Shown piece after piece: positions 5,138-45,765 of a stretch of 64,000 nucleotides of DNA (positions are counted from its first letter, which is position 1; every line of letters begins with the position of its first letter). Where the stretch lies: contig NBBA01000010.1 of the NCBI GenBank assembly GCA_002794785.1, positions 1,054,001 to 1,118,000 on the forward strand, given 5' to 3'. Below the pieces are notes generated by a model. The model saw nothing but the letters and a program-made list of their open reading frames with translations. It had not been told where the DNA came from and ran no database searches. Both the position numbers and the translations under genes were made by a program. Source of the stretch: Coniferiporia sulphurascens. Lineage: Eukaryota > Basidiomycota > Agaricomycetes > Hymenochaetales > Hymenochaetaceae.

Positions 5138-5394
5138 TATTAAATAAATATAATGAACGATATAAATATAGTACATGGTCATACGACCATCCACCTTACT
5201 AAGTAAATGATAACGCAATGATAACGCCATACGATATAGGAGCTAGATAGATATAGTAGTACTAGCTCATGGAACATGTATATAAGGGGAGCTGGTCTTG
5301 CCCTAGAAATACATTGGTTTACGCTGATAACCCACCTTGCCTGAACTTCACCACTGCACCTCATTGTCTACCACAATGTGCGTAGATTTTAAGA
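5138..5394 (+). repeat. 3' LTR of the copia element, 257 bp
   Basis: Starts TATTAAATAAATATAATG and ends GATTTTAAGA. These same ends bound the solo LTR at 14726-14980, which has a 5-bp target duplication, so the boundaries are well defined. The termini are not TG..CA. Confidence 0.93.
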
Positions 5395-8300: not shown

Positions 8301-9876
8301 AAGACCTTCGAGTCCGAGTCAGCCCACTCCTTGACCCATTCAAACACGGTTGAACTCGTCCCTCTCGGATAGACTCTTTCGTTGCTATAGAAAGCAAGTT
8401 CTGCTGGACGCAGCCGCTGCATCAAGGCATCCACCATATTCCTTTCTAAAAAGGACATTAGTTGTGTAAAGAAATAATGCGTCGCAAAGTACCTATTATG
8501 CGAGTATTTCTCTCTAAGAAAAGAAATCAGTGATGTTAGATACGAAAGAGTAGCGTCGTGAAGTACCTATTCTCGTGACAGCCCCCCAAACCTCCATCTT
8601 AATATACCAATCGTAGTTCTCCTTCAACCTCTTGAAATCATTCTTCGACGAGTCGATTTTCTCTTTATGAGAAGAGAGCAAGTCGCCTATAAAAGCTATT
8701 AGACACTAAGGCGAAGAATGTTTACATTCATACTTACCGAGAACTCCGTCCGAAGAATACTCCATGACGAGCCTAGAAATTTGGCAGAACATATCCAGCA
8801 TCTGCGTAACCAGCTGTCGGGTCCGTCCGTTCTCCACGAAGTCCTGCGGCACATCATTCGTGTATGGTAGAAAGGTCTCCAAGTCTTCCATGAGTTCGAC
8901 AGCAGCGGCGTGGCATTCTTTCTGCAGTTTGCATCTCTGTAACGAACATTAATATATGCATTTAAAAGGCTTACTTATCACATCACCTCATACAATGCAT
9001 TCACGGCTATGACAGCAGCTTTCACGGCGGGGTGCACCTATGATGGTTCAGGACGACAGTGAGTGGTAAAACCTCGACGAAGACTTACGTCAGACGCGAC
9101 ACGGGTGAATTTCATGAAGCCAGCCAGGATATCCGCAGTCTTCCCTAGAGACTCCAGAAGCACCTTCTTCTCCCCCAATTGCTTCTGCGCCTCCTTGACA
9201 AGGAGCTCGGTGAAAGCGTCGGTCTTCAATTGATTAATTGTACCGTTTCGCGTGACTTAAATTTAGCTAGCTCACCGGCGATATCGAGATACATGACAAC
9301 TTCAGCTGAACTCTACTTTTGCCTATGCCAGCGAGTGAGCGCTTAGGTATCACGCATGCTTAAAAACATACCTGTAGCCACGGCCTTAAAAGTGTCCTTC
9401 CCGATAGTATCCTGCGACTTTACTTCAAAAGTCGAAGAAACCTTGTTACGGATCGAATGGACCTCCTGAACGACGATAGAAAAATCCGTGGTCACCGGAA
9501 TATGTCTGGGGAACATCAGCGCGCTGGGTGGGGTCGAGTCTAAATATTCACTCACTGATAATCCTCCAGGTCCCAACAAACGAGACCATCCTTCCCGAAT
9601 CGACGCGACGTAAGCGTGTGCTCGCCTTTAACTTTAAATTCGACAAAGACAGGGTAACGCGGACGCTTGTCCGCGTACTTAATTTCGATCGCTTTAAAAT
9701 GATATCGCGCTTAACAGTCTAGTCGAGTTTGAAAGGCTTCACTTTACCTTCGATATGTACGAGCCTAGGCGATTCAGACGATCTCGCTTCAGAACGGATT
9801 CCATAAATGGAAAAAAATCAGTAACTCACTGTTGATCGAGAGATACAACAGCAATTTGGTTCTCGGGTTGAGACAT
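5395..9876 (-). pseudogene. NACHT-WD40 STAND (NLR-like) gene, disrupted
   Basis: Read on the minus strand from ATG 9876. Small exons at 9876-8600 have introns with GT-AG ends and encode a short N-terminal C2-like stretch and helical segments. A long exon (about 8510-7050) carries the NACHT core: a degenerate P-loop (GVTEHGGGSIAH, where fungal relatives have G-x-GKS), a good Walker B (PLIIVIDALDALD), and the downstream NACHT-type helical region. WD40 repeats follow (6810-6550 and 5963-5560) with the signature GHS-x-VxSVAYSPDGRHIVSGS-x-D-x-TLRIWD. A C-terminal cap (VKKEI-x-DDGWLRD-x-x-GHLLLWVPHEYR) ends the protein. Such proteins act in fungal non-self recognition; the partner here is unknown. 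A solo LTR interrupts the repeats at 5986-6544. The last residues are replaced by the copia 3' LTR. The missing Walker A lysine suggests ATP binding was impaired before or apart from the insertions. Confidence 0.85.
5986..6544 (-). mobile_element. Solo LTR-A (copy 1) in the WD40 gene
   Basis: 559 bp, TGTTAAGCTC to ATTGTAACA, flanked by CATTC at 5981-5985 and 6545-6549. Removing the LTR and one CATTC restores a continuous WD40 frame on the minus strand (RIWN joined to AQTG). Confidence 0.96.
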
Positions 9877-15819: not shown

Positions 15820-17170
15820 TGTTAGATTCGCTCCCTGACTAAGGGGATTGAAGCAAGTGATAACAGATTCACACAATAATACTAGTTAGTTTAGGGTAGG
15901 CTTGTTACCCTCCACTCACTAGAGTGTTAGAGCTGATGATGGTGGTAAGAGACAAGAGATGAATTAAACTGCTTTTTACCGCAATTTTACATTGGGCTTT
16001 TATACCCTACATGTTGTAGTCTATTTACTATGTTCCAGTAGATACTACAACATACTACTCTCGCTTTATAAGTCATAAGAATGTTCCGGTACAATCCTGT
16101 ACATGCTATTTACTATTCTTAGCTTCTTATGAGTCAGTTACATATTCTGGTACATTCTACAGCCTACCATGCTATCTTTATCTTATGCCAGAACCTTCCC
16201 TGAGTTTCCATCAAGTCATACAGTGTAATACCTAAGTTAACCATTCTCAGATACTACTATACCTATGATGCTTCTCCTTATTTCCTAATCGGTTCTGCTG
16301 TGCGATGCACTATACTTGGCTCCCATCAATTGCATCTTCTAATTGATTGCCATGCTCCCATCAGCTAATCTTAGCCGAATGCTTAGATATACTTGTGTGG
16401 CTCAGCGATTATGCTAGCCTTCTTAATCTTATCTTATTGTGGCTTGTTACTTATTACCTTAGACTAAGATTGAGTCATTCCTTCCATGATATTGTTAAAA
16501 GGGGTTCATTCTGGTGTTCTATCATCTATTGGCATAAAGAGCACTTTGGGTCCTATAGCGTTTATATTTGTTATTCTGCTATACCCTGGTGTGACTCTAT
16601 ATGATGGTTCATCATTGAACCATCACATTATAATCTCTTTATCTATTGGTACTAACTCCTGTCTTAGATTTGGTTCCTTTCAATCTACTGTTGTGTGTCC
16701 TTTGGCTATGAAGTTGGCTTTGTATGCAAATAGTTGTTCTCGTAATTGTTTATTGATAGTATGTACTATTTGGTGTGCCGCTTCTGCATAATTGGTTGAT
16801 GTAATAACCGCCCTTTGATAACATAATTCATTATGTGGCTGATTATAAATCTTGGTTCTTGTGTAAGTGCTGATTACATATCTATTCAATTGGTATGAGA
16901 ACATAGTCACTCTATGTTCAATTATTACTTCCAGCCTTTCCGCCACTTGTTGTTCCCTTGTAGTATGATCAAATGTAATTTGACAGTTGTCATATCCTGC
17001 ATTCTGTCCTACTGTTGCGCATGCAATATTAAAAGCTTTCCATGCTACTTGATCTGCATCTTTACAGTGTTGGCACAGGTTCCTTGTATCAATTAAAGTT
17101 ATGGGTCTTGCCATGTTGATCTTGCTAATCTGTTGATCTGGCGATCACGATTTTCATCAATTTACTAACA
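15820..17170 (-). mobile_element. Element C copy 1, 1351-bp LTR-like unit with ORF
   Basis: Minus-strand copy, exactly 1351 bp like 56512-57862, ending TGTTAG..CTAACA. The sense strand has an ORF near the 5' end and TATAAAAGCCCAA about 185 bp from the 3' end, the layout of a long U3 followed by R-U5. The flanks differ (GTGGT and ACCCT): one side is a gypsy remnant, the other a WD40 gene. The copy is therefore probably a recombinant between two insertions. Confidence 0.8.
16680..17114 (-). CDS. 144-aa ORF of element C, function unknown
   Basis: Starts MARPITLIDTRNLCQHCKDA and ends at a TGA shared by all three copies in the window. It contains four cysteines, CxxC near residue 14, and a basic, helix-prone C-terminal half (REQQVAERLEVIIEH). 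The same protein is read at 56568-57002 and, interrupted, at 55433-54250. Amino acid changes between copies are few. The frame stays readable for about 70 more codons past the TGA (PIDKEII, SYRVTP), so the original protein may have been about 217 residues. I do not recognise a gag, protease or transposase motif. Confidence 0.6.
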   Translation of the reverse strand: MARPITLIDTRNLCQHCKDADQVAWKAFNIACATVGQNAGYDNCQITFDHTTREQQVAERLEVIIEHRVTMFSYQLNRYVISTYTRTKIYNQPHNELCYQRAVITSTNYAEAAHQIVHTINKQLREQLFAYKANFIAKGHTTVD

Positions 17171-17572
17171 ACCCTCAGGATCTGGGATGCACACACTGGG
17201 AAATCTGTAGGAGATCCCCTCACAGGACATTCAAATTGGGTCCAGTCTGTTGCCTACTCCCCTGATGGAAGACACATTGTGTCTGGTTCATATGACAATA
17301 CCCTCAGGATCTGGTATCCAAGTGCATTTTCAGCTAGTCTCCTACAGAATGTGAAAAAGGAAATTGAAGATGATGGATGGCTGAGAGATACAGAAGGACA
17401 TCTCCTGCTCTGGGTGCCACATGAATATCAACACCATATTTTTGGAATCACCACAGCATGCAAACTGTGCATCTCATGTAAAACCAGTGATCACCCTATA
17501 CATATCAATTGGAGTATACTGTTCACATGTAGTGGATTGTCCTGGGTCAATATTTTCGAGGATGAGGCTTAG
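17171..17572 (+). pseudogene. C-terminal fragment of a second NACHT-WD40 gene
   Basis: The plus-strand frame reads two WD40 units (LRIWDAHTGKSVGDPLTGHS, then VAYSPDGRHIVSGSYDNTLRIW) and the same C-terminal cap as the gene at 5395-9876 (VKKEIEDDGWLRDTEGHLLLWVPHEYQ). The repeat, NACHT and N-terminal parts are absent: element C begins directly upstream. It is a paralogue rather than a duplicate of the other gene, since the cap differs at several residues. Confidence 0.85.
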
Positions 17573-22414: not shown

Positions 22415-22543
22415 CATCAGCAAAAAACCATTAACCTATATTTTGCTATTTTTTACTATTTTTTACTATTTTTCACTATATAGCACTATATAGTGAAAAA
22501 TAGCAGAAAATAGCAAAAAATAGGTTAATGGTTTTTCCTGATG
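22415..22543. mobile_element. Foldback MITE with CATCAG termini, 129 bp
   Basis: The whole unit is an inverted repeat: CATCAGCAAAAAACCATTAA on the left pairs with TTAATGGTTTTTCCTGATG on the right, with CTATATAGCACTATATAG at the centre. It is flanked by TC on both sides. The termini and the CTATATAG words match the ends of the 9.9-kb element at 28860-38791, so the two belong to one family. Confidence 0.88.
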
Positions 22544-22682: not shown

Positions 22683-22898
22683 TGAAGAGAAAAAAGGGAC
22701 AGTTTTTTCACTCAGAGACAAAAAAACCCAATGTTTTTATAGGGCTGACAGCCAGGCCGTCCACATGATGGCCCCATGCTGTGTGCATAGCTCGCCTGAT
22801 CGAATTATTGCACCTTGCCACATGAGTCGGTGGCTTATCGGTGCCCTGGGTTTCAGCTGTACATAAAATCATTCCATGTCTCTTTTTCTTTTTTGTGT

Positions 22899-23580
22899 AT
22901 GGAAATGACCAGGACGAAATGGAAGACACATTCCCTGCCATCCTGCCTGTTCTGCCATCGTGAATTTCCCACCAATGCTGGTCTCAATAGACACCTTGCT
23001 TTGAAGACCTCTTGTTGCATAGCAGAACAAGAAGCCTTTATCAATGCCCAAGTCAATGCTGATGACCAGGGCGATGCCAACAATATAGTTGACTACGATG
23101 TTGACAAAGGATTACAGACCTGCTTCGATGTAGAAGTCTTCCCTTTACATGTGGCCAGCCCTGCACCATCAGCCCCTGCATCTCACACTGGGACCGAGTC
23201 TGCACCAGACGAAGGCACCTTTAGATACTCCATCAAGCATGACTGTCAAGCAGGCGCTCCACTATCCAATGAATGTCGACCAACATGGTTTGATGACTTA
23301 ACACAAGAATTCCCAGTTGCCGATGGCACATGTGGTCTGTTCGCTGACAAAGACAAATGGGAATTTGCGAAGTGGTGTGCCAAAAATCTTGGAAAGGGGG
23401 AATGTGATGGTCTGCTCCAGATGGATTTTGTAAGGCTTTCCTAACAATGTCAGAGTCAGCCTGACCAAGCCATTCTACAGATATGCAATCACTGCCAGCC
23501 TTCCTTTCATAATGCTCATGCCCTCTACCAGCTCATTGATGACCTTCCTAAGGGTTGTGCATGGACCCGCTGAAGAGCTC
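22899..23580 (+). pseudogene. Plavaka transposase, N-terminal part
   Basis: From ATG 22899 the protein starts with a C2H2-type finger (CLFCHREFPTNAGLNRHLALK), then a variable linker and the W-rich block typical of Plavaka proteins (FADKDKWEFAKWCAKNLGKG, residues about 150-170). After a likely intron near 23425-23480, SFHNAHALYQLIDDLPKG continues it. The frame fades after 23580 and an LTR-B follows. The catalytic core is missing here; the C-terminal part reappears at 43497-45765 beyond gypsy-1. Plavaka belongs to the CACTA-like (CMC) group of cut-and-paste transposons known from fungi. Confidence 0.78.
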
Positions 23581-27923: not shown

Positions 27924-28482
27924 TGTTACAATTTTCCTTTACTTCCCCTATTGCACTGACTCACTTCCTATTCCTCATCATCAGTCAGTGCAACTCCCCC
28001 CTTCTCTCCCTTACTCATCCTTATTTGCCTTACACCATAAGATGCCATGATGTTGCTATAAGCACACCATCATGACATGCTTTGCTTACTGATAGCCCTA
28101 CTTGTATTACTAAGGCATTCCTTGGGTTTCCATGACCTTCCACAGTCTGGTAAACTACCCTACACAGGCCGCTACAGTAGTAAACACATAGAGTAGCATA
28201 TAAGCATGTAACGTCAGTAGCACAAGTCCTAAGCTTGTGCTCTTTGTTCATACAAGCCCATTATCTGCTACCACCAGTCTCCTGTGTGCCATTGTGCCAC
28301 CAGTTGCTTTGTCGTAACCCGACTCCTCTAAAAGAAGCCTACCGCATCCACATCGTCGATCAGGAAGCCCCCTCAATGATCACCTTCGACTTACGACATC
28401 TAGGAAGCCCCATTGCCATACCATCAGCCTTGACAATCAGGAAGCCCCAACGTCGATCACCACATAACCATTGAGCTTAACA
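27924..28482 (+). mobile_element. Solo LTR-A (copy 7) in gypsy-1 RT
   Basis: 559 bp, flanked by CTGGA at 27919-27923 and 28483-28487. Excision rejoins the RT frame (MIITLD to NIHMDP). An LTR of the same family has thus inserted into a member of its own family. Confidence 0.96.
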
Positions 28483-28879
28483 CTGGATAACATCCACATG
28501 GACCCAGTCAAACTGGCCGGGATTGCCGACTGGCCCACCCCGTGCACCGTCAAACAGCTCCAAAGCTTCATGGGATTCTGTAATTATTACAGGAGATTCA
28601 TCCCCAGCTTCTCAGATATTGTATATCCACTTAACGAGCTCACCCACACCACTGAACCCTGGAAGTGGACACCGGAACGAGACCAAGCATTTACTAAACT
28701 CAAAACACTGTTTCTCGACAAACCGGCCTTACTCGTACCCGACCCCACCAAGCCATTCATCCTTGAAACGGATGCGTCTAAGGTTGCTTCTGGCGCCGTC
28801 CTCTATCAGACAAACTCCAATGGTGATCTTCAACCATGTGGCTATATTTCGGAGACTTTCATCAGCAAAAGCCTAAATG

Positions 28880-29080
28880 CTATATAGTGTGGCAGGATAA
28901 CTATACAGCACTATATAGCATTAAATAGGACTATTTTGTAGCTTTTGAGATAATATAGCATATATAGCACTATATAGCACTATATATTGGCCAATAGTGC
29001 TATATAGCAGTATATAGTACTATATACTGCTCAAGTAGTACTATATAGAATTACATAGCACTATATTACCTTCTGATAAG
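28880..29080 (+). repeat. Left subterminal CTATATAG repeats of the TIR element
   Basis: Dense irregular copies of CTATATAGCACTATATAG-like words, mirrored at 38620-38780. Confidence 0.85.
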
Positions 29081-29603
29081 TATTATGGCTATGTTTGAGT
29101 ATTTTGAGTATTTCAGATTATTTGAACTATTTTTTCAGTCCCAAATCCTCAAAGCATTGGAGTAGAAGCCGAATTCATCACACCCTCCTTTCAAGGCTAT
29201 GCCAAAAGGTGCACTCAACTGTGATGTACAAGCTGACCGACGGTACCCCACCTCTTTTTGCTTCAGTAATAATATCTCATCTTGCCCGTTATTTCCATAC
29301 CATTCAAGTTAAGGAAAAGCAGTACACTATTCCAACGAGATAAGTAATTACACAACAGAATCTAAGCGCATGTAGTAAAAGTGGGAGGACGGAGATAAAG
29401 AGACGGGAGGCGTACTTCAAGACGAGGAGACAGTTTGAGATAGAAAGATAAAAGTACGAAACGGAACGGACATAGCAGCCAGCACAGCACAGCAGAAACA
29501 CATGGACTTAAGGAGAGAAAGCAGAGGGGCTTGTCGTGCATGTAGTTAGAGTAGAGACGACGCGAATTTGAGTGATGGTAGTTGAAAAGGACTTGCGTGT
29601 CTG

Positions 29604-32490
29604 ATATCCATCACGGGGGCGCACCTTGTAATCGCATTTGCACCTTTGCACGATGCTGGCGATTTTTAAGGTGCACCTCGAAGTTTATGAGCGACTCGCC
29701 AGGACCTGGAGTATATACCTGTGCCAACGCCGATTGCTAAACAGTCAACATGCCATTCACAGCAACCGGCAGCAGGTGAAGATAAACACACCTTTCCAGG
29801 ACAATCAAGGCACCTCACACGCCACTCTGATGGGAAGCCGTTGGCCGCCCTGCGCAGGATTATATCAAAGCGATCTTCGGGATAGCGGGATTGCATTTCA
29901 GCAATTACACCTTTATGCCACTGGGGCCGCTGCGGTTCCGTGAGAACACCATACAATGCGTGATATAATTATATATATACTCACTAAAGTGGGGAGGTAG
30001 TGTTTCCTGGACGGGCGTTGCTTCAGGTGCAGGAGTAGCGGACGCTATGGACGCCGACGGGGGTTCGGACTGTGCCGACTCTCTGGGTGTTGGCGCTGAT
30101 GCCGAGGCCTCTGCCTGCACTGGTAACTCAGCTGCCGCCCTGGCCGGGGTAGTAGCAGAAGACACAGGTCTGCTTCCACTGGCACCACTACCTTGCAGCA
30201 CCGCCTGTGCAAGTGGACGCTCTGATGCACCTGAACTGACGCTAGAGGCCGGCGACAGTGGACATTCAAGAAGCTCAAATGCCTCCGATGCCGGTGATGG
30301 TGGCCGTGTCTTCTTCGCTGCCTTGATCTCAACCCACACCTCATGCTTCGGCACAGCCGGCGAAGATGTGCCGTCTGTAGGGGAGACAGGGGCCGGAGCT
30401 GCATCCTGCTGTAAATTGAGCGCACACATTGCTGCAGCGCCACCCCGCTTTTTCGCGCTGGCTTTAGCGCGCTTGGCCTCCATCTTGAGGTTGGTATGAT
30501 ATTCCACATCAGTACTATACTCCACCGGACGTGGACGACGATGGCGATGCCAAAATTTGCCTAAGAAATCATCATCAGAATTTCGTCAACCACAAGGGAA
30601 ATATATGATCCGTACCATGGGTGCCGCACTGCGACCTGTCACCCAGCGGACCCTTTCGTCTACCGATAGCGATACTGTCGGGACAGCCACAGTTGGAACA
30701 ATGCCAGACACCATCGATTATGTTCGTGTGCTGCCCATCTGCACACTCACGCTCTTTGGTTTCTTTCTCGAGCTCTCTCTGCCGACGGGCCGAGACAACC
30801 TTCGCCGCTTTTGAATCCAGCGCAGCTGTAGACAACGTTAGTGACACTGGTAACGGAAGATCGCCCTCCAACGGGGGCTCGTATGTTGCCACATCCGCCA
30901 CAGTCGATGGCATCGGTGTGGTGACATTTGCGTGAGCAGTCAACACGGACAAAGGGTACTTTGGTGCCTTGAAAGAGCCTTTCGCCTTCGGGATCTCTGA
31001 CAACGGAACTGCAGGTGCCGCCGGCATGCTCGAAACAGGCTGGATTATCGCCGTGCCGTTCTCTGAAGCGACCATATTCGCGATAGTGAGAGACGCCACT
31101 GCCGCAGCCGCCCAACGCGACGTCGGTGCAGCCGGTGCGGCTGCAGCAAGAGCAAGCATAGACGGATCGATCTCGGGGAACCCAATGGCCGGAGTACGAT
31201 GCACCTTGAGTGGCTCACGATCAGGTAAAGCAATTCCGCAACATCCACACGTATTACGTTTCCGTCATTTATTAGCTTCCTTTTCACGTTCTTTATCAAG
31301 CCTGTTGAGTTTTCCATCGCTCAGATAATTGATGATCAGCTGGAACAACTGCGTTTGATCGACAGACCGAGACACAGGAGCGATCGATAGCAAGGACATG
31401 TGCAAATCGTCATCTTGCACCGCCGAGCCGTCAGATGGGTGTCCAACCAAGAAGAGCGACTTCTGGTAGGCATTGACTTGCTCCCGTATTGAGTGTGCGA
31501 TGGTCGTTCTGTAAAATCAATTAGGATGTTATGCCGTCAGCGATCAGTGCTGTGCCACTCACTTAAATTCTCCAGCGAGGCCAAGATCACTGCTATAAAC
31601 CTCCACAAATTGTTCTGGCGACGAATCTTCATTTTCAATATCCCACTCAAATTGATCATCTAACTTCATCTCGCCCACAGTTATATCGAGCTGATAATAT
31701 CAACTAGTAAGCATTGCGTAGTTACGGAGCGCAACACATAATAAAGTTGACCCACCTTGATAACTATCCGCATCTCCTCATGCATCATGTCCTCATTCAC
31801 TTTGAACATCCCGATGTCCATCGATGAGTCTTCGTCGACAGGAGCCTTTTCCACGATGACGCTCGCTTCTGGGTTGCTCTTGCGGCGCTTCTTTGCACGT
31901 TCTGGCAGCTCCTGCACACTTTGAAATAGCGTGTGTGTGTGGACAAATCCATTACCCTTGCGTAAGCGTCGTCTCCAGGTTTTCCACCACGTTGCTTCGG
32001 CGTCCTGAAATCTGCTACACGTCAGTGCACCTTCTGGGTTACCTGTCGAGGGGTCTGCAAAAGTTGCAGTGTGAGCCTTGTAGTTGCTCAGCTGCTCCTG
32101 GATAGCTTTCGTGTTTGTTGAATGATAGCTCGAGGACAGTCTGTAGTCATCAATAACTAGCTGCGCAAACGCTTCTGCGGTGACAATAGGATCTAACACA
32201 TCAACAGGTTAGACGACGCGAATAAAAGAAACTCAGAAAAAAATCCCTCTCACCATTCAAGTTCCATACGAACATGTTGTGGTACTTGTGATGCTCGACT
32301 TCAAACTCTAAACGAATCGACACGAGCTGTTCTGGGCGATTTGCATCTGCGGGCTTCAACCGGCCAGGAATCTTCAAGTCCTTGTGGCGTTTCCTGCGTT
32401 TCCTCGCACCCGCCACATCCTGCACACCAGACATGCGCAGGTACTCAAGATTAAACTTCTCCTTTCTCTGTACGCATGCAACAGCAGCTT
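29604..32490 (-). pseudogene. SNF5: SNF5 (SWI/SNF core subunit) gene fragment, captured
   Basis: Minus-strand exons cover most of a fungal Snf5. First SNF5 repeat: VSIRLEFEVEHHKYHNMFVW, then over an intron near 32192-32256 VTAEAFAQLVIDDYRL and IQEQLSNYKAHTATF. Second repeat: MKLDDQFEWDIENEDSSPEQ and DLGLAGEF, continuing VGHPSDGSAVQDDDLHMSLL. Then comes an Ala/Pro-rich linker, a GATA-like finger (CSNCGCPDSIAIGRRKGPLG) and the conserved C-terminus (WRVRCLDCPGK; NFEVHLKNRQHRAKVQMRL, stop near 29605). Introns with GT-AG are retained, so capture was at DNA level. The frame is largely open. The N-terminal part is missing and replaced by a VPS35 fragment on the same strand, so a fused transcript is conceivable. 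Snf5 normally acts in chromatin remodelling in the nucleus. Confidence 0.88.
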
Positions 32491-32639
32491 CAGCCTGTGC
32501 ATGGTTTGGTAGGAGCTGATGGGAGCAACGAGGCCCCGAGGAGCAAGGCGAGGTTGTTTGTTGTTTGCATTGTGTGCAGGTCCGGGCTGAGTGGGTGTGT
32601 GAGTGAGTGGTAACAGTCAATTGAAGGGCATGTAGCTGA

Positions 32640-33640
32640 CCTGTCTGAGAATTCTTTGATGTTCTCGCTTTCGAAGCCTATGATCTGTTCGGCGTACATG
32701 GCGAGCCTGTCAATGAGCGTGATGACAATCTGCTTGATGTTGACGGACTGCTGGAGCTGAGCAGTGGCAGAGAGGAAGGGACCGAGAGAGTAGAGATGGA
32801 ACTCATCAGTGAAGACTTGGATGACGACTTCCATGAGGTACTCTTGGGTGATGATGTCTTTGCAGTTGACAACCTGCTCGAGGATGCTTGGGAGGATTGT
32901 ACGCTGATACATTCCGAGGTCGACGCTGTCAAGCGCGCTGAGCCGTACGAGGTTGGTACCGATGAGGATACACAGCTCACGTCGCTCCATCTCGCGCTTC
33001 TCGTGGTCACGCGAGAGTCCTTGGTGCTGCAACCGCACCCAGAGCTTGTTCATCTCGATGAAGTTGGTGAGTTCGAATGTGTTCGAGTCCTGCAGGTTTC
33101 CGACCGGGCTGTTACGGTGGAAATGAGGTCAGGGAGCAGAGCAGGGGTAGGACACGTACCCCTCGTCGTTGCCTACAGGGAGGTTATCCCGGGTCTGTCC
33201 GCTGAGGTAGTGGCAGAGGAAGAGACCACGGGTAGGGTGCTGTACGCCACGCGACGTCTGCATCATGTCCTTCATGATCTCCTTGACGGACACGTCAGGG
33301 ATAGACATGTAGACGGCGCCGACAGTGATCATAAGGTACAGACGCGGGACGATGTTGCCTGCATATTGAACGAGCTTGTAGAGGTCTGCGAGATGGTGCT
33401 TTCCCTGGTGTGTGCGTCATAGAGGTAATTAGTGAGGTGTCGGAGGGCGTCAAACACGGCCATGTCTGCGGAGGACGCGTGTCAGTGCTGCGGCATTGGG
33501 AGACAGAACAGTGGGAAACCATGCATGTACACAATTTGTAGTACTGCTTTGGAGAGAGTGAGGAGGATAGTGCTGGCGCTCTTGAGCGTGTCCATGAGCT
33601 GGTTGATCTCCTGCGGGCGATTGACTTCATTTGAGTCTAT
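32640..33640 (-). pseudogene. VPS35: VPS35 (retromer) gene fragment, captured
   Basis: Minus-strand exons encode the N-terminal third of Vps35: [34 protein letters not shown] then [30 protein letters not shown] then [10 protein letters not shown], and [20 protein letters not shown] with [20 protein letters not shown]. The normally conserved PRLYL and PTRGLF motifs are recognisable. The rest of the protein (Vps26/29-binding solenoid) is absent. A possible splice donor near 32644 would join it to the SNF5 fragment downstream. Retromer normally sorts cargo from endosomes. Confidence 0.88.
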
Positions 33641-33962
33641 AACCTAAAGCCTGTAATGTTAATTAGAAAGCATACTGTAAATGGAAATTGGGTCAGTAAG
33701 GTAGTCATAGGGAATGAATTTTGAAGAAATTTCATGGCCTGAATGGCTCAGTGGTTGAGTGGTTTCCGAACCATATGGAGGCTTGCTTAGAGTCAGGTGC
33801 TTTCGGGTTTCCGAACCTTATGCATCTGCCACTGGGATTGGCACAGATACCGTGATGATATTAAGTCTTGTTCTCTAGGTTCCCTAGGTTCCAGTGGTAT
33901 TGTGTATGGCATGAATAATGCTACACTTCTCTATTTCATTTTATTTTATCTTATGTTTTGTG

Positions 33963-34046
33963 GCTTTCACCCCCAGATGCTGCGGTGGGAGGGCCAAGTC
34001 CTGGGTTCGAGCCCAGTGAAAGCAAGTGAATTTTTATTATTTTTTC
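33963..34046 (+). other. tRNA-like module with Pol III-type signals (SINE-like)
   Basis: GCTTTCA (33963-33969) and TGAAAGC (34017-34023) can pair as an acceptor stem. Between them, CTGGGTTCGAGCCCAG forms a T-arm with a B-box (GGTTCGAGCC). A T-rich stretch follows at 34031-34046. A separate A-box-like string, TGGCTCAGTGGTTGAGTGG, lies at about 33742. At 61 nt between stem ends it is too short for a functional tRNA, so a tRNA-derived SINE or pseudogene is likelier. Confidence 0.4.
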
Positions 34047-35445
34047 CTAATAAATGCCACAATTCCCACGGCCAACTGTGCCGTGGGGGGGGTGTTGCAA
34101 CTGCAGTGGTTCGCAAGGCCCAGACGCATCCTCCCTCCCTCCACCCACCAAAGAGCCTGATGCTCACTCCTCCATCCGCTCTGTTGTGCCCTCGTTGTCG
34201 AACTCGACTGCCGCCCACACAAAATGCACCATGGTCCATGCATGGGTTTCACACAGGAGAGTGAACTGCCCTGTGGCAATTACTACTGCAGCAAGCGGTG
34301 CAAGCCAGAGAATCATGTAGAGTTGCTAAAGTGCATCACAGCCCTCCATACAATCCATGATTTTTCCTAACTATATCCCAGGAAGCTGCAAAGGCACCAG
34401 CGACAGAGCTCTGAGAAGTCTCTACACGCATCCCACCTCTCACTCACATTCTCCCACTCACTTCTTGAAAACAGCGAAGAGGCAAGACACAATGAATGTG
34501 GCTTATGAAGAAAGCATACAGGAACTTCTGGATGCAACAGTGGTAGCAGCAGAAGTGTTGCCTAACGGTGATGTAGTGAGCAAAAACTGGGCTATGAGTG
34601 TTGCAGAAACCAAAGAAGTAGTAGAAGAAGTTGCTGATGTGGTTTCCGGGGGGCGGAAGAAACGAAAATGAATAGATGAGGACATGTACGCATTCTTTCC
34701 TTGTTGAAATGCTGGCAGTATTTGACATCATCGTCCAGTGTGTCTACGAAGAGGAAGCGATCGTCTTCTATCGTTTCGGAATGCATAGCCACAACAGCAT
34801 CAGGTACCAAAAAGCCGGAGAAGATTGCAGAAATTACTACGACTCTTTTACCACCACCTCCACCCCCGGTGCATGGAAAATCACATGTCAGACACGCTGG
34901 AGGTCGGAAGAGTGCCATCACACAGGATGCCTCTGTTTTGGATGATGGCGAGGAAGGTTTGTAACTCCGGCTTGCTTTTACTATGGCATTGCTGGAGGCT
35001 AATGGTTAGTACAAGGGTTGTTAGCCACTAAGAAGCATCCAAATCAGTACACTTATCGAGGTAAATCTGGCTCTAATACCCAGAGTCGACGTGCACTGCA
35101 GTCGGCACTTGGACAAGGCCAACATAATTCGACAACGTGTGACCCATGGCACACGTTGAAACGCCAATAGCTCTGGGAACTCTGGTGGTCCATTGGGCTC
35201 CGGCTCGCGAAATACTCACAGCGCATACTACAATAACATGCAGCTCCCAGTGTTCACAATGTGGGGCATCTCAGACTACATCGCACGCCTCCAGTCCATC
35301 CTTCCCTCTGAAGTCCCACCACCTTTGCAACTTCATGGTGTGACCGGTTTCTTCTGCGATGAAATCCGTCCGATAAGCACGGCAGCCGATGAGAATATTG
35401 GTCCGAGCCTGCTTTCCAATGAAAGTACCGATGGTCAGACAGCAG
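34047..35445. other. Interior of the TIR element, unassigned
   Basis: It contains a 59-codon ORF (34492-34671, ending in a basic GGRKKRK) and a cysteine-rich stretch near 34230-34310 (PCGNYYCSKRC). Neither is recognised. Other pieces of genes may be present but cannot be named. Confidence 0.35.
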
Positions 35446-35446
35446 A

Positions 35447-35693
35447 CGCAACGCCTTTGACCCAGAAGAGGACAAACCTGTACTGGAGCTCACATGGCCC
35501 CACCTTCAAATTGTCTACAAGCTCTTCTTGCGTTTTGTCGAGTCGACTGATTTTAATACCAATATTGCAAAGCGGTTCATCGACCAGTCGTTTGTGCTGA
35601 ATCTGCTCGAATTGTTTGATTCGGAGGACCTGCGCAAGTGTGACTTCCTAAAGACAACATTACATCGGATCTATGGAAAATTCCTAGATCGTC
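35447..35693 (+). pseudogene. PP2A B56 regulatory subunit fragment, captured
   Basis: The plus frame reads [20 protein letters not shown], then [20 protein letters not shown], and [20 protein letters not shown] with HRIYGKF. This is the conserved central HEAT region of B56/PPP2R5 (yeast Rts1) subunits. Only about 82 residues are present. The match breaks after GKFL, where the family continues with LRAFIR. B56 directs protein phosphatase 2A to its substrates; this piece cannot do so alone. Confidence 0.88.
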
Positions 35694-37059
35694 TTCTGTG
35701 GAATCTGTCTTTGGTTGCGGTCAGTCCTTCTCGTGCCACAGGAGCTCTAATGCCAGTGTTCCAACCCTTATATCGGACATAGATCTCTCAGAATAATCGG
35801 AGGACATAGATCCCTTTGGCGTGGATGATGACAACGTAGATGATGCCTCCCTTGAACCTTCCTCTAAGAACACCACTGGGGCCGTGAATGAAAAGGCCAA
35901 GGAATCAACCACCAACTCTTCTGAAGTAGTCATCAAGAAGAAAGCAATCACAGAGCAGAGTGCCCAGGCAAAGAAGGGCTTCAGCTGGTTCAGCTGGTGA
36001 CTAAAAAGTAAGAAAGGGCTCACCACCCCCAGTAGGCGCAGCAGTGGCTGTACCAATAAGCTTGGTGATGCTGTAGGAGATGGACCCGAGTCGCGTCCTA
36101 CCCGTCTATTTTCTTCCGTCTACGGTGGATGTGGGAGTCGAGCATCGCCTTCGTGATGAATTGACCAATAATCTTGAATACATAGGTACACTTTTCTCCA
36201 CAGTCAGCTGTGGTATCAGATGGCCCCACTGGGGCGGAAAAGAGACCGGTGGGGTGCAGAACGTAAACACCAGGATGAGTAGTGTCAGCGTCTCGTCAAA
36301 TCTTCAAGTCCCGCCTTGCGAACTCCTTGGACACCATGGAATAGAATTCAAGTTTTGGACCTAATCCAGTTCCAACCTCATCAAAGTACTCGACCTCCAG
36401 AATCGATGAAGATGACCTGTAAAGCTCGAACACTTTGAAAGCGGATTCAAGTATTCAAGTATATGCTTTCTTGATATCCGAACCTTTTGCCTCTGCAAGC
36501 GCCCGAGGAAAGTAAATGTGTCGTCTCTCCAAGACGTCTCCTGGGCACGATTTTGGCTCTGTCATTTTAAAATAAGGCATGCATAACCGAAGGATGTTGA
36601 CTGTAGGAATGAGAAGCATGTAGAGAACAGGAATAAGAAAGGGAAATGAAGTAGGAGATCCAAGGCCCACTCCAGAATGCAGGAGCTGAAAACAAAATGA
36701 GAACACATAGCTAAAGCAATGTCAAATTACGCCGCACCTAGCTATGATCATCGGCTCTTCTAGCTGACAAGTCAACTTAGCGGTCAATCTATTATTAATA
36801 AAAGCTGTCTCAGGAAGTAGCTGGGCATCGAAAAGCTATCGTCATTAATGTCTGCATTCAGTCTGTGTAGGATGCACAAAAGCTTGAGAATTTTCGAGTA
36901 CAATGCCTCATCATGAAGGGAGGCTAGCAAAGAGACAGGTGATCTTGCCCACAATGGGGAATCAACTGCGGCTTATGAGGATTGAGTCGAACGTAAATCA
37001 GGCCGAAGGGCACACCAGACTTACTTTTGGCAACCCATCGAGGGCTGGTTACTTTCTTG
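35694..37059. other. Interior of the TIR element, unidentified coding-like pieces
   Basis: The plus frame 35790-36080 is acidic then lysine-rich (SEDIDPFGVDDDNVDD; QAKKGFSWFSW) with TAA and TGA stops. A minus-strand segment at 36500-36620 (including TVNILRLCMPYFKMTEPK) also looks protein-like. Neither could be assigned. Confidence 0.3.
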
Positions 37060-37331
37060 TATTTCACAGTATACACTCCTTGCCAGATCATATTTGATGG
37101 GACAGTGCCCCCTGGAGACTTGCGAGCCTCATGTTGGTGTACAGCCCCATAGATACTCATATCCAAAGGGAGAATATGACCATCCATGTTGAATTCCAGA
37201 TGCCAATTGCTGCCTTTGTTCTTGAGTGCAGCTGTGTAAGAAGGCTTCCAATCTGACAAGCCAGACATTGGTCCCAGGCCTGTAGCACCCAATGCAGGAT
37301 TAGGCATTGCCACACAGGTTCTGTCCAGCAT
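37060..37331 (-). pseudogene. Ufd4/TRIP12-like HECT E3 ligase fragment, captured
   Basis: The minus frame contains WHLEFNMDGHILPLDMSIYG then AVHQHEARK and IWQGVYTVKYKKV. This resembles the region before the HECT domain in Ufd4/TRIP12 proteins, where a D-x-x-LP-x-x-M-T-x-Y-x-A-x-x-Q block is followed by W-x-x-x-x-TI-x-YK. The HECT catalytic part is absent. Assignment is by memory of the family and moderately sure. Confidence 0.6.
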
Positions 37332-38459
37332 CTACACCTCCACCTTTGAACCATCTGTCAAGAAGACAGATCAGATATGACACAACTTATTTTGGGCCAT
37401 ATAAGCCATACTGGCAGCTACTGAGAGTGTGTCAGTCTTTTCTACAGAGCCATCGGAATCATCATCCAGATCCTCCTCAAATACCTGAGCACTATAAGTT
37501 ATACTAGAAGAGTGAGTTATTTGGGGACTGGTCAACTCCCAGAAAATATCCCAAAAGTAAAATGTCTATGTGAGGTAAGTCCCCAGTGAAGCAAGGGATT
37601 GAGGGCTTGTAGAAGCAATAAACAAGCTGGGCAGGTTTATGCAATATGTGAGAAATATTTCCTTATATATCTCTGTTTGTGGATATTTGCCTGTCATGTG
37701 ACAAACTTCTATAAATCTGACTCAGGGTCTCTTGCTTCTTTTCCTTTTACCACCATCATCCCATTTGCAAATATTCCACATTTGGGACTTTGGTCATCCT
37801 AGATCATAAAAATATGTCTTGGGAAGTGGAGAAGGAGACTGATAGATTATCCTACTTTCTCTTCTCCATATTCACTCCCACATATTATGTCTGCAATGCA
37901 TCATCTCTTAATTTCAGATTTCTACATCATTACTTCTTCCTCCCACAAGGACCCAATGCCTATCATGCTTGTTGATTTGCATGTCCTTGGGAGTACATCA
38001 TTCATGCCATATCTGGCCTGTCCCTCATTTGACTTTGGCATTGCTTTCTCAAATAGCCTTGCCATTGTCACCAGTGCATATCACATTTTTCAAACATTCT
38101 ATGATGTAATTCTTTCCATTTATTTTGACTGACTTATAGATTCATCCACCATTCCAGTTGAACATCTAGGAGGTCTACCCATATAGGTGAGTAATGTTTC
38201 ACAGATCTGATGAACATCTCTTTATAGCTGAGTTATTTATGCTTTCACTAACAAGACTCCTGCTACCATGCCCATAGAGTGTTTCTTTTTTTTAATTGCT
38301 TAGGATGTTTTGGTCCCACTGACCACTGATTTGCCAGTTTTATGCTTCTCTTCAGTCATACTTACATGCACCTGACTTGAAGAATAAGATGTCTATATAC
38401 TATAACCAATAGAACATATTTTCTCTGAAAGGAATAGACAAAGAATGTGATCAACCATA
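37332..38459. other. AT-rich interior of the TIR element
   Basis: No convincing coding region or RNA gene. Short ORFs are of biased, hydrophobic composition. Confidence 0.4.
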
Positions 38460-38791
38460 TGGCCAGGGAGATTATCAGTCAGAGATAGTGGGAAATAGTC
38501 AAATATAGTCAGAAATAGCCAGAAAATAGTAGTAGATAGCCATAAATAGTGAGAAAATAGTTGAAAATAGACACAATATAGTGAAAAATAGTTGGAAAAT
38601 AGTACAAAATAGTGGAGAAAGGGGGCTATATAGCATTATATAGTGCTATATAGTAAGGAGGCCTACTATATAGTACTATATAGTACTATATATGACCAAG
38701 AAGGGCTGGATTAACCTATTTTACCTATGGGCCCTATTTTAATTATATAGTGTTATATAGTACTATATAGCATTTTGGGTTTTTCCTGATG
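38460..38791 (+). repeat. Right subterminal repeats and TIR of the 9.9-kb element
   Basis: An array of AAATAGT/AATAGTC words (38470-38610) followed by CTATATAGTACTATATAG copies and the terminal inverted repeat. Confidence 0.85.
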
Positions 38792-39660
38792 TTCGGACTG
38801 GCCCAACAATGCTACAAAGTCTATGATAGGGAACTTCTCAGCATAATACGTGGCCTAGAAGCATGGCATCACTATTTACTTGGTAACCCACATACTACCA
38901 CAATCTGGTGCAACCACAAGAACCTTTCATATTTCCGCTCCGAATGCCGCTTAACGCCACGACAATCGTGATGGAACCTATTCCTGTCCCAGTTCAACTG
39001 TGTGATCATGCACTGTCCAGGAAAGTCCATCCCGGGCACTGATGCACTATCTAGATGCCCGGATCATGGCAAAGAACCACTGGAAGAATGCATTATGTTA
39101 CCAGAAACACTATTCATCAGAACCATCAACGTTGACCTCCACAACAGGATTCGGGATGCACAGGAACACGATTCCTTCACCAAAACTATTCAAGATGCCC
39201 GATCCCTGAAAATTCCATCCCCATTCCGATTCTCACTTGATGATTGGACCATCGACTCTGGTCTCCTCCGATACCAGAAACGCGTCTATATACCAGATAG
39301 CACCAATATCAAATGACAAATTTTGCAGATGTTCCATGATCTTCTGTCCTTCGGCCACCCCGGGGTATTCAAAACCTCGCAATTAGTGCGACAACACTAT
39401 TGGTGGCCCAGCTTAACTGTTTTTGTGGGAAACTACATCAAAGGCTGCGCCCCGTGTCAACAAATGAAAATCAACACACATCCGACCAAGCCGCCAATGC
39501 TTCCGATCCCCACGGATGCGTCCATGCTTCCATTCCAATTGGTCTCCATGGACTTCATCACCGACCTACCCACATCAAATGGATATGACTCCATAATGGT
39601 AGTAGTGGATCACGACGCTTCGAAAGGAATTGTCCTTATACCCTGTCATAAGACAATCAA

Positions 39661-40201
39661 TGTTACAATTTTCCTTTACTTTTCCCTTTAATGCGCTGAC
39701 TCACTTCTCCTTCATCATCATCAGTCAGCGCAACTCCCCCATTTCTCTGCCTTACTCATCCTTATTTGCCTTGCGCCATACGACGCCATGATGACGCCTT
39801 ATTGCACCATCATGACGTGCTTTGCTTACTGATCACCGTACTTGTATCACCAAGGCCTTCCTTGCATTTCCATGACCTCCCATAGTCTGGTAAACATACA
39901 TAACCAAGTCGCTACAGTAACAAACACATAGAGTAGCATATAAGCATGTAACTTCAGTAGCACAAGCCCTAAGCTTGTGCTCTTTGTTCATACAAGCCCA
40001 TTATCTGCTACCACCAGTCTACTGTGTGCCTATTGGCCATTAGTCGCTTCGTCGTAACCCGACTCGCTAAAGAAGACCCTCACGTCCACATCGCCAATCA
40101 CCTTCGACTTACGACATCTAGGAAGCCCCGTTGTCGCAACCATCAGTCCTGATGATCAGGAAGCCCCGACGTCGATCACCGCGTAACTGTTGAGCTTAAC
40201 A
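39661..40201 (+). mobile_element. Solo LTR-A (copy 8) in gypsy-1 integrase
   Basis: 541 bp, flanked by ATCAA at 39656-39660 and 40202-40206. Excision rejoins the integrase frame (KTI to NALGTAK, as in gypsy-2 KTVDALGTAK). Confidence 0.96.
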
Positions 40202-43496: not shown

Positions 43497-45765
43497 GTAA
43501 GGAACGCTACTGCCCAAAATGTACTGTGCCACAGGACAACCTTTCTTCAGTGACCGACTTTCCTCTATGTGACCCAACTCACACATTGCAAGCCTTGCTA
43601 TGAAACACCGACCCTCAGCGGTTGGAGCACCCACCTGTGTTTGTGAATGAGGGCTTGCGACCCGTAAAAAACCCATTTTGGAGTGACCTTCCCTACTGTG
43701 ACACATTTTCTGCAATTACACCCAACATCCTACATCAACTTCACAAGGGTGTCTTCAAGGATCATCTCATGGACTGGTGCATGACTATCATGACAGAAGC
43801 CGAAGTAGATGCACACTTCAAGTCCCTGCCCTCATTTCCCACACTCTGCCATTTTAAGAAAGGCATATCTGGTGTATCCCAGTGGACTGGCACAGAGCAC
43901 AAAGAGATGCAGTGCATTTTGTTGGCCCTTATATTGGGTAGCATTCCTCCACAGCTTACACAGGTTGTTCGGGCTGTCATTGACTTTATTTATTATGCTC
44001 AATTTCTCTTGCACACATCGCACACCCTACAAGAAATGCAGGGCACACTTGATGATTTCTATGATAATAAGGACAAAGCCATTCAACTGGGGATCAGGGA
44101 GCACTTGAATATCCCAAAGCTTGTGTCATTGAAGCACTACATCATGGCGATATGCAAATTGGGGACTGCAGATGCTTTCAATACTGAATGGTCGGAGCAC
44201 CTGCATATTGATTTCGCAAAAAAAGGATACTGCGCAAGCAACTGCAGGGACTTCTTCCCACAGATGATGATGTGGCTGAGGTGACAAGAGTCTATGCATC
44301 TTTTTACATGTTATGTGCTGTGGATGGAGAAAGGAAACTCCAGGAACAATGACACTTCTGATGAAGAAGGTACAGACAATGGCACTGTAGATTCAGGGGA
44401 TGATGGCCAGGATTCCGGCACACAAGACATGTTTTTTTCAGCACCAGGGGCAGCTCTGTCACATTATCATATAGCAAAGACCTGTCCTTTTCCACACAAA
44501 ACGATACAGAGTGTCACCGAGGACCATAAGGCACCTTTATTCTTACATGCTTTAACTGAATTTCTTCGAAAGCAAGGCCCTGTTCATAGCACTCTAAGCA
44601 TATTTGATACACTGCCAGTATACAAGGTATTCAAGCTGCACCTTCTGCGAATCCCCCAAGTGGCCGATAACAAACAACTGTTGACAATGCGCACAATCCC
44701 TGCTGTACCAAGACGACTTCCATACACAGGGCAAGCTGAGCATTTTGATACCATCCTCGTAAGGAAGGGAGGGGCTGTTAAGCTCAACAGTTATGTGGTG
44801 ATCAACGTCGGGGCTTCCTGATCGTCGAGAGATTGAGTGGGCAGCTATGGGGCTTCCTGATGCCGTTAACGAAGTTGATCGACGATGGGGCTTCCTGATC
44901 ATTGCTAAGGTATGCGGTATCTTCCTAGTAGAGTCTGGTTAAGATGAAGTAGCTGGTGACAAGGTAAAGCACACAGTATTTGGTGAGGTGCATATAATGG
45001 GCTTGTATGAACAAAGAGCACAAGCTTAGGGCTTGTGCGATCTATGTTACATGCTTATATGCTACTTTATGTGTTTGCTACTGTAGCGGCTTGTGTAAGG
45101 TCATTTACATGGCTATGGAAGGTCATGGAAACCCAAGGAGTGTCTTGGTAATACAAGTAAGGCGATCAGTAAGCAAAGCACATCATGATGGTGCAACATG
45201 GCATCATCATGGCATCTTATGGTGTAATGTGAATAAAGATGAGTAACAAAGGGGAATAGGGGAGTTGCGCTGACTGGTGATGATGAAGATGAAGTGAGTC
45301 AGCGCAATAAGGGAAAAGTAAAGAGAAAAATGTAACAGGGGCAACTTCATTGCCGACTAGGACAATGGAAGGTTAGTCCAGCAACATTAGATGGATACAG
45401 TAATCTCACCATGGCTTGTTCACAGGACTTCACCTTGCAAGAGTGAAGGTAATATTTACTCCCCCCCCCAGTTTTCAACAGTGCCATTAAGGCTGGCATA
45501 CATAGAATGGTTCAGGCCCTTCCAGAACGAAGACTGAGACACAGGGCTTCACATATTGACTTGGGCAACTAGCTGTGGACAGCATCAGGCCGAGATAATC
45601 CCACTGGATGATGTTGAGCAAAGTGCCCACTTGGTTCTGAAATTTGGAAAGAAAATGGATGTGTCCTGGAACAATAGCAACATCTTTGATGAGTGTCAAC
45701 AGTTTTTCGTAAACCGCTTCATAAACACACACACCTTTGTTCTCATGTGCACATATAAGAGATAA
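43497..45765 (+). pseudogene. Plavaka transposase, C-terminal part, broken by LTR-A
   Basis: The frame begins RYCPKCTVPQDNL, with [20 protein letters not shown] and [19 protein letters not shown], the hallmark Plavaka block. It continues through [15 protein letters not shown] and [12 protein letters not shown], then after a short gap the acidic stretch at 44340-44420. FDTILVRKGG is broken by LTR-A (44776-45337). Frameshifted C-terminal pieces follow (LHLARVKVIF, then AEIIPLDDVEQSAHLVLKFG to about 45765), which in Plavaka proteins form the small C-terminal domain. A TGA near 43602 also interrupts it. Together with 22899-23580 it forms a transposase that lacks its middle part. Confidence 0.85.
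44776..45337 (-). mobile_element. Solo LTR-A (copy 10) in the Plavaka gene
   Basis: 562 bp, flanked by GGGGC at 44771-44775 and 45338-45342. Its end sequences look mixed between the two LTR-A subfamilies. Confidence 0.95.

What the first reader, a model, noticed from the sequence alone, without database searches (positions are those of the whole stretch)
28860..38791. 9.9-kb TIR element with intron-containing pieces of at least four host genes
The insertion point is fixed to the base because it splits the gypsy-1 RNase H frame. Between inverted CATCAG termini lie fragments of SNF5 (nearly the whole 3' two-thirds, with introns and a largely open frame), VPS35, a PP2A B56 subunit and a Ufd4-like ligase, in both orientations and without a recognisable transposase. 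This is DNA-level gene capture by a cut-and-paste element on a scale rarely described in fungi. The VPS35 and SNF5 pieces lie head to tail on one strand with plausible splice sites between them, so a chimeric transcript could form.
Basis: partly seen in the sequence, partly recalled or inferred. Interest (0 to 1): 0.9.

Follow-up and report, generated by a model that had tools for sequence, protein, structure and literature searches.

The report
Fungal transposon carrying copied host genes
A 9.9-kb jumping DNA element in a fungal genome has copied in intron-containing pieces of at least four host genes and carried them to new places, a behaviour well known in plants but hardly described for cut-and-paste elements of fungi.

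Summary
Window 28860-38791 is a non-autonomous cut-and-paste transposon: CATCAG..CTGATG ends, CTATATAG repeats near both, inserted in a gypsy RNase H frame. A full-length copy (C9, 98.3-98.9% identical) and half a copy (C30) sit elsewhere with other flanks. Ends, 2-bp target duplications and 17-19-kb relatives encoding a Plavaka transposase (5 of 5 long, 0 of 7 short) place it in PlavakaB. Parents lie elsewhere: SNF5 (C14), VPS35 (C1), B56 (C13) and a UFD4/TRIP12-like gene (C2), 84-94% identical, with SNF5 and VPS35 introns kept. Three further pieces match other loci. Secure host sequence is 61% of the element, 78% with the probable pieces. The SNF5|VPS35 junction is the same in 5 of 8 copies read, so in these it arose once. 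Two other elements carry nearly the whole VPS35. After correction for CpG>TpG bias, captured SNF5 evolves near neutrally (omega 0.68-1.28), against 0.12 on the host-element branch. So the pieces look like passengers; a VPS35-SNF5 chimeric frame is possible but untested. New variant of a known kind: a Pack-type Plavaka element in a fungus.

The parts
28860..38791 (.). whole non-autonomous PlavakaB element (9932 bp)
   Evidence: inverted CATCAG ends, 2-bp TSD, full-length copy at C9:155263-165457
28860..28887 (+). left terminal inverted repeat
   Evidence: 21 genomic matches with up to 3 mismatches, control 0
38763..38791 (-). right terminal inverted repeat
28860..29164 (.). left terminal region with CTATATAG repeats, shared by the short-family copies
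   Evidence: query 1-95 hit in 7 of 7 fetched short copies and others; 5 CTATATAG in the left 350 bp
37516..38791 (.). right terminal region, shared by short-family copies, with CTATATAG repeats
   Evidence: alignments
29163..32502 (-). SNF5 fragment from inside exon 1 onwards to at least C14:239828 (whether it passes the gene's stop was not determined); parent C14:236485-239828
   Evidence: 91.8% over 2740 bp, 94% over the outer 738 bp
32499..33619 (-). VPS35 fragment with one internal deletion (bases 1559-2074 of L062 missing); parent within C1:1197250-1200350
   Evidence: 84.5% and 89.4%
33730..34231 (.). repeat piece also found in the long, transposase-bearing elements
34240..35440 (.). 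probable captured piece of an unidentified locus, C3:1045700-1046917, 89%
   Evidence: no Pfam match over its cut-off
35448..35690 (+). PP2A B56 fragment; parent C13
   Evidence: 90.1% over 243 bp
35695..35844 (.). probable captured piece matching C3:1391135-1391284, 85%
35848..36128 (.). probable captured piece matching C6:1812815-1813098, 86%
36128..37515 (-). UFD4/TRIP12-like fragment; parent C2:2998448-2999817
   Evidence: 91-92%
28468..28859 (+). gypsy RNase H frame, left of the insertion
38792..39316 (+). gypsy sequence resuming right of the insertion

Best explanation
This is a non-autonomous PlavakaB (CMCT/CACTA-like) DNA transposon, a fungal 'Pack-Plavaka'. Shown: it has the ends and target duplications of a family whose 17-19-kb members encode a Plavaka transposase; it carries copied, intron-containing pieces of SNF5 and VPS35 and pieces of B56 and a UFD4-like gene, whose originals remain elsewhere; it is found at three places with different flanks (the third seen only in half). 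Inferred: the long members' transposase, or that of a close relative, moves it by recognising the 28-bp ends and CTATATAG repeats. Host pieces entered when gaps inside element copies were refilled by DNA synthesis that switched to other templates, and later deletions and recombination between copies reshuffled them. VPS35 probably entered early and nearly whole, SNF5 was joined to it once, the small pieces came in other steps. The pieces are now close to neutral passengers that decay mainly by CpG>TpG change, as methylated DNA would.
For: Ends and TSDs: 11 of 13 pairs; published PlavakaB ends CATCA..TGATG with 2- or 3-bp TSD (PMC12730594, passages). Transposase: PF18759 E 3.4e-51, in 5 of 5 long and 0 of 7 short elements. 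CTATATAG: 105 of 115 occurrences lie within about 350 bp of an end in 12 elements. Parents and collinearity. All five SNF5 introns inside the captured stretch are present, 9 of their 10 splice sites intact. One joining event: junction SNF5 1343 | VPS35 1369 is the same in 5 of 8 copies; the other 3 fit later deletions. Template switching: BLAST ends overlap by 4 and 7 bp at two junctions. Recombination between copies: ours matches C2/C12 at 21 of 23 informative sites below VPS35 position 700 and C3 at 6 of 8 above it (Fisher P 0.0009; the cut at 700 was chosen after seeing the sites). Near-neutrality: spectrum-corrected omega 0.68-1.28 in seven SNF5 lineage tests against 0.12 for the host-element branch.
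Against: No transposition was observed. The short family's ends resemble but do not equal the long family's, so the partner may be another, unfetched member. Raw Ka/Ks between SNF5 copies is below 1 (0.36-0.51 apart from the very young pairs). One VPS35 lineage (C15) stays below neutral after correction (omega 0.47, P 0.036); SNF5 ours-clade (0.68, P 0.079), SNF5 C6old (0.69, P 0.107) and VPS35 C6old (0.52, P 0.091) lean the same way. Intron divergence is lower than Ks; I attribute this to CpG content but did not test it. C3_2046 lacks a TSD. The PlavakaB branch was not tested with a tree.
Confidence: 0.9

Rival explanations
1. The captured SNF5 (or a VPS35-SNF5 chimera) is a working gene of the element or host, kept by selection.
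For: C30 copy: 0 stops and no frameshift over 807 codons; 0 stops has probability 0.019 given all 179 differences from the host shared by ours, C9 and C30; ours-clade corrected omega 0.68; an in-frame chimeric splice is available in ours (581 codons, acceptor 32465).
Against: Probability of 0 stops is 0.21 when only the 68 clade-specific changes count; omega not different from neutral (P 0.079); ours has a stop, C9 a 2-bp deletion, and the fifth donor is GA in all three; the VPS35 frame is broken by a shared 17-bp deletion, with three stops before its long open stretch. About one acceptor in three would be in frame by chance (reasoning, no call).
Confidence: 0.07
2. Repeated independent captures of the same genes rather than one capture that spread.
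For: SNF5 identity to the host differs (83-84% in two C6 copies, 91-93% in the others); the VPS35 and SNF5 trees place C15 differently (support 46 and 98).
Against: Same junction in 5 of 8 copies; the other three junctions lie inside the same pieces and fit deletions; five of ten VPS35 copies compared share the same 17-bp and 1-bp deletions.
Confidence: 0.1
3. Helitron or other rolling-circle capture, or a Starship-type cargo element.
For: Large size and multi-gene fragments.
Against: Inverted repeats at both ends and 2-bp TSDs in 11 of 13 pairs; relatives encode a Plavaka transposase.
Confidence: 0.01
4. The capture happened in a related species and the element then came by horizontal transfer or introgression.
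For: At 50 exon sites all copies that have a letter (at least four) agree against the host SNF5, mostly synonymous (39 of 50), so the donor sequence differed from today's host allele.
Against: The same pattern arises if the capture is old and the host gene evolved since under constraint.
Confidence: 0.08

Closest known systems
PlavakaB DNA transposons of Agaricomycotina (Kojima 2025, PMC12730594, passages seen)
   Same: CATCA..TGATG ends, 2-bp TSD, PF18759 transposase in the long members; some published ones carry an extra TET/JBP gene
   Different: Here the cargo is pieces of several housekeeping genes, with introns, and the short members lack transposase. The passages shown (12 of 26 places) mention no such capture.
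Pack-TYPE elements of plants, with Pack-CACTA and Pack-MULE (PMC8903248, listing only), and Pack-TIRs of animals (PMC8277862, passages)
   Same: TIR elements holding host gene pieces, some multicopy, some transcribed as chimeras
   Different: other kingdom and another transposase lineage; here pieces of at least four and probably seven loci in one element, up to 3.3 kb each
hAT transduplication of histone H3 in Pyrenophora and Pseudocercospora (PMC3538342, PMC6710886, passages)
   Same: a fungal DNA transposon that captured and amplified a housekeeping gene
   Different: hAT with 8-bp TSD; one gene; in Pseudocercospora intronless, thus a transcript or retrocopy. Here DNA-level with introns and several genes.
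Helitrons of Pleurotus (PMC4289320, passages)
   Same: fungal transposons carrying extra genes
   Different: rolling circle, no TSD; [quoted passage not shown]

Membership tests
PlavakaB | termini 5'-CATCA..TGATG-3' | tested here: met
   definition from PMC12730594
PlavakaB | 2- or 3-bp target site duplication | tested here: met
   11 of 13 end pairs exactly 2 bp; this copy TT/TT (one extra base, or imperfect 3 bp)
PlavakaB | Plavaka transposase (PF18759) in the family | tested here: met
   5 of 5 long members
PlavakaB | Plavaka transposase in this copy (autonomy) | tested here: not met
   0 of 7 short members; hence a non-autonomous derivative
PlavakaB | transposase falls in the B branch of the Plavaka tree | not tested
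   no reference sequences fetched for a tree; best relative is from Phellopilus nigrolimitatus, 68%
Pack-TYPE (TIR) transposon | host gene fragments between TIRs with parents elsewhere | tested here: met
Pack-TYPE (TIR) transposon | introns retained (DNA-level copy) | tested here: met
   for SNF5; for VPS35; not examined for B56 and the UFD4-like piece
Pack-TYPE (TIR) transposon | moved as a unit (several copies, distinct flanks) | tested here: met
hAT transduplication | 8-bp TSD | tested here: not met
   8 bp stated in PMC6710886
Helitron | no TIR (recalled), no TSD (PMC4289320) | tested here: not met
Starship | tyrosine recombinase captain (recalled) | not tested
   no search with a captain profile; ends and TSDs argue otherwise

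The most novel reading that the evidence does not exclude
PlavakaB elements of mushroom-type fungi are a general gene-shuffling system: by template switching and recombination between copies they assemble multi-gene chimeras, and in the ours clade a VPS35-SNF5 fusion kept its SNF5 frame open long enough to be expressed, possibly as a truncated SNF5 that disturbs the SWI/SNF remodeller, or as antisense or small RNA against the parents.
Probability: 0.08. Interest if true: 0.85.

Novelty: new variant of a known kind. Interest (0 to 1): 0.66.

Why it matters
Gene capture by cut-and-paste elements is well documented in plants, while the fungal examples I found are one-gene hAT cases and Helitrons that, in Pleurotus, do not tend to take host genes. 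Here a fungal transposon family copied large, partly intron-bearing pieces of several basic cell genes. One gene (VPS35) gives matches over the Pfam cut-off at 17 places besides its parent (my grouping), a trap for gene annotation and a natural series of capture steps. Young copies and transposase-bearing relatives in the same genome make the capture mechanism testable.

Tried and rejected
Rejected: raw Ka/Ks below 1 as proof of function; after correction for the CpG-rich spectrum only one of the twelve element-lineage tests with enough changes stayed below neutral at P < 0.05 (VPS35 C15, P 0.036). Rejected: C30 as an unmerged haplotype of the C9 copy; flanks differ. Rejected: the outer end pair of C6_715 as one element; the inner start at C6:715920 gives the matching TSD, so it is nested. 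Rejected: assembly join.

Led nowhere: identity of 34240-35440, 35695-35844 and 35848-36128; Pfam on 10 ORFs of this and neighbouring parts gave only matches below the cut-offs. VPS35 lineage tests had too few changes in 4 of 9 cases, the host branch and ours among them. The tree of SNF5 copies has weak support (64, 70) near the host branch.

Literature searches behind the statement that this was not found in print: (open-licence PMC texts only). Of the papers that hold 'Plavaka' (11 held, 10 listed) I saw passages of two; the rest only as listings. PMC8277862, PMC6710886, PMC3538342 and PMC4289320 were seen as passages, PMC8903248 only as a listing. No paper was read whole.

Full report
What is there. 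The interval 28860-38791 begins CATCAGCAAAAGCCTAAATGCTATATAG and ends with the inverse of CATCAGGAAAAACCCAAAATGCTATATAG. The 28-base pattern, with up to 3 mismatches, occurs 21 times in the 39.3-Mb genome (0 for the pattern read backwards), and the 14-base core 63 times against 4. The interval splits a gypsy RNase H frame; six of the seven other gypsy copies that I aligned run straight through the site (one that aligned badly was dropped, and the search had scored 40 matches in all, this copy included). I fetched or had twelve elements by pairs of facing ends: seven short (8.2-10.6 kb, this one included) and five long (17.2-19.3 kb). One more pair on C15, 25 kb, was fetched only in part, and one on C1, 24 kb, not at all. 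Many ends without a facing partner were left aside. Eleven of 13 end pairs show exactly 2 bp of target duplication. The two misses are C3_2046 and the outer pair of C6_715, which is a nested insertion whose inner pair matches. At this copy the duplication is TT, with one base more than other gypsy copies have, or an imperfect 3-bp TTT/TTC.

Which family. A long-element ORF of 667 aa matches Plavaka transposase PF18759 (E 3.4e-51). By tblastn that protein is present in all five long elements and in none of the seven short ones. Kojima 2025 (PMC12730594, passages) describes PlavakaB with ends CATCA..TGATG and 2- or 3-bp duplications, in a CACTA-related group called CMCT there. The ends of short and long copies are alike over the first 50 bases, and 105 of 115 CTATATAG words of the 12 elements lie within about 350 bp of an end. 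The element is therefore a non-autonomous PlavakaB. That the long members move it is inferred.

What it carries. SNF5: window 29163-32502 corresponds to C14:236485-239828, 91.8% over 2740 bp and 94% over the outer 738 bp. A host gene model with five GT..AG introns is open over 1255 codons, incomplete at both ends of the fetched DNA. These five introns all lie inside the captured stretch and are present in ours, with 9 of 10 splice sites intact; the fifth donor is GA. VPS35: 32499-33619 corresponds to parts of C1:1197250-1200350 with one internal deletion and both introns of the compared part kept. B56: 35448-35690, parent C13, 90.1%. UFD4/TRIP12-like: 36128-37515, parent C2:2998448-2999817, 91-92%; the name rests on a weak hit to TRIP12. 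Three further stretches match one place each outside the copies of the family that I know: 34240-35440 (C3:1.046 Mb, 89%), 35695-35844 (C3:1.391 Mb, 85%) and 35848-36128 (C6:1.813 Mb, 86%). I count these as probable captures only, because I could not read those loci. The four named pieces make about 6.1 of 9.9 kb; with the three probable ones 7.7 kb.

History. C9_155 is 98.3-98.9% identical over the whole length with the same junctions. C30 holds about half of a third copy, identical to C9 over the compared SNF5 exons (0 differences in 806 codons) but with other flanks, so movement is recent. The SNF5|VPS35 junction (SNF5 1343, VPS35 1369 by BLAST ends, 4-bp overlap) is the same in ours, C9, C30, C3 and C6_960. 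In C15, C6_1988 and C6_715 the junctions lie deeper inside the same two pieces and fit later deletions. Two short elements, C2_675 and C12_725, carry about 2.96 kb of VPS35, nearly the whole gene. The Pfam profile finds VPS35 over its cut-off at 17 places besides the parent, by my grouping of the 57 matches; 15 of these 17 lie inside an element or within 16 kb of a family end (the two others are C1:32 kb and C11:412 kb). Ours shares a 17-bp and a 1-bp VPS35 deletion with C2 and C12 but not with C3, yet shares the SNF5 junction with C3. Along VPS35, single-base changes switch from C2/C12-like (21 of 23) to C3-like (6 of 8) near parent position 700-750 (P 0.0009 with the cut chosen after seeing the sites). 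So copies appear to recombine or to serve as templates for each other. Long elements also hold host pieces: stretches of the B56 locus in four of five and, in one scanned, a glycosyl hydrolase 5-like ORF below the Pfam cut-off.

Is it functional? Raw Ka/Ks between SNF5 copies is 0.36-0.51 except for the very young pairs, which looks like constraint. But changes on element branches are rich in transitions at CpG (34 of 65 in the ours clade, 33 of 54 in C3, 15 of 60 in the older C6 pair). Redealing the same kinds of change among like sites gives corrected omegas of 0.68 (ours clade, P 0.079), 1.20, 0.95, 1.28, 0.69 (C6 pair, P 0.107), 0.86 and 0.99, against 0.12 for the branch between host and elements (39 synonymous of 50). 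For VPS35, 4 of 9 tests had too few changes; the others gave 1.36, 0.65, 0.47 (C15, P 0.036), 0.52 (C6 pair, P 0.091) and 0.80. So mostly neutral, with a few weak signs the other way. The C30 SNF5 frame is wholly open. Zero stops has probability 0.019 given all shared differences from the host, but 0.21 given clade-specific ones; the first figure is the less fair one, because part of those differences arose in the constrained host. In ours the spliced SNF5 frame has one stop, and in C9 there is a 2-bp deletion. A VPS35-SNF5 transcript using the old VPS35 donor near 32640 and an acceptor at 32465 would be open for 581 codons; about one acceptor in three would be in frame by chance.

Mechanism. 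Gap repair with template switching is a published model for Pack-TIR elements of animals (PMC8277862, passages). The overlaps of 4 and 7 bp at two junctions and the mosaic of copies fit it. Capture itself was not observed, and only these two junctions were measured closely.

Known or new. Fungal precedents found are the hAT/histone H3 transduplications and Helitrons, which in Pleurotus do not tend to take host genes. Full-text searches for Plavaka, alone and with capture, listed the TET/JBP cargo paper as the only related material that I recognised; other Plavaka papers were seen as listings except one. I rate it a new variant of a known kind.

Host. The transposase and SNF5 are closest to proteins of Phellopilus nigrolimitatus, 68% and 73%, order Hymenochaetales.

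Noticed in passing
window 43604-44821: Fragment of a second, distant Plavaka transposase (34% identical to the long family's), a different Plavaka group in the same window.
   Followed up: partly
window 22415-22543: Two CATCAG-type ends lie about 100 bp apart (one with a mismatch), close to an ORF at 22800-23444 with zinc-finger-like matches below the cut-offs; perhaps the stump of another family member.
   Followed up: no
window 27926-28463 and near 39660-39690: A short sequence interrupts the gypsy frame between its reverse transcriptase and RNase H parts; similar peptide-like strings (VTIFLYF) recur at other frame breaks in the window. Looks like a small non-autonomous element (by eye).
   Followed up: no
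window 33735-34050: Repeat piece with tRNA-like A and B box words (recalled motifs; ARAGORN found no tRNA), overlapping a stretch shared with the long transposase-bearing elements; possibly a SINE inside the family.
   Followed up: partly
window 7007-8566 and 17129-17572: An NPHP3_N (NACHT-like) ORF and a WD40 ORF; with similar-looking ORFs at 5361-7049 (by eye) they resemble pieces of NACHT-WD40 genes of mushrooms (recalled).
   Followed up: no
G000 contig ends C30:1 and C9:1: Both contigs begin inside copies of this element, in parts that hardly overlap, so the assembly may be broken at a copy here.
   Followed up: partly
L037 (C22:324499-325341): A second SNF5-domain locus, full-length to the Pfam model with one stop or intron inside; not the parent of the captured pieces.
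   Followed up: no
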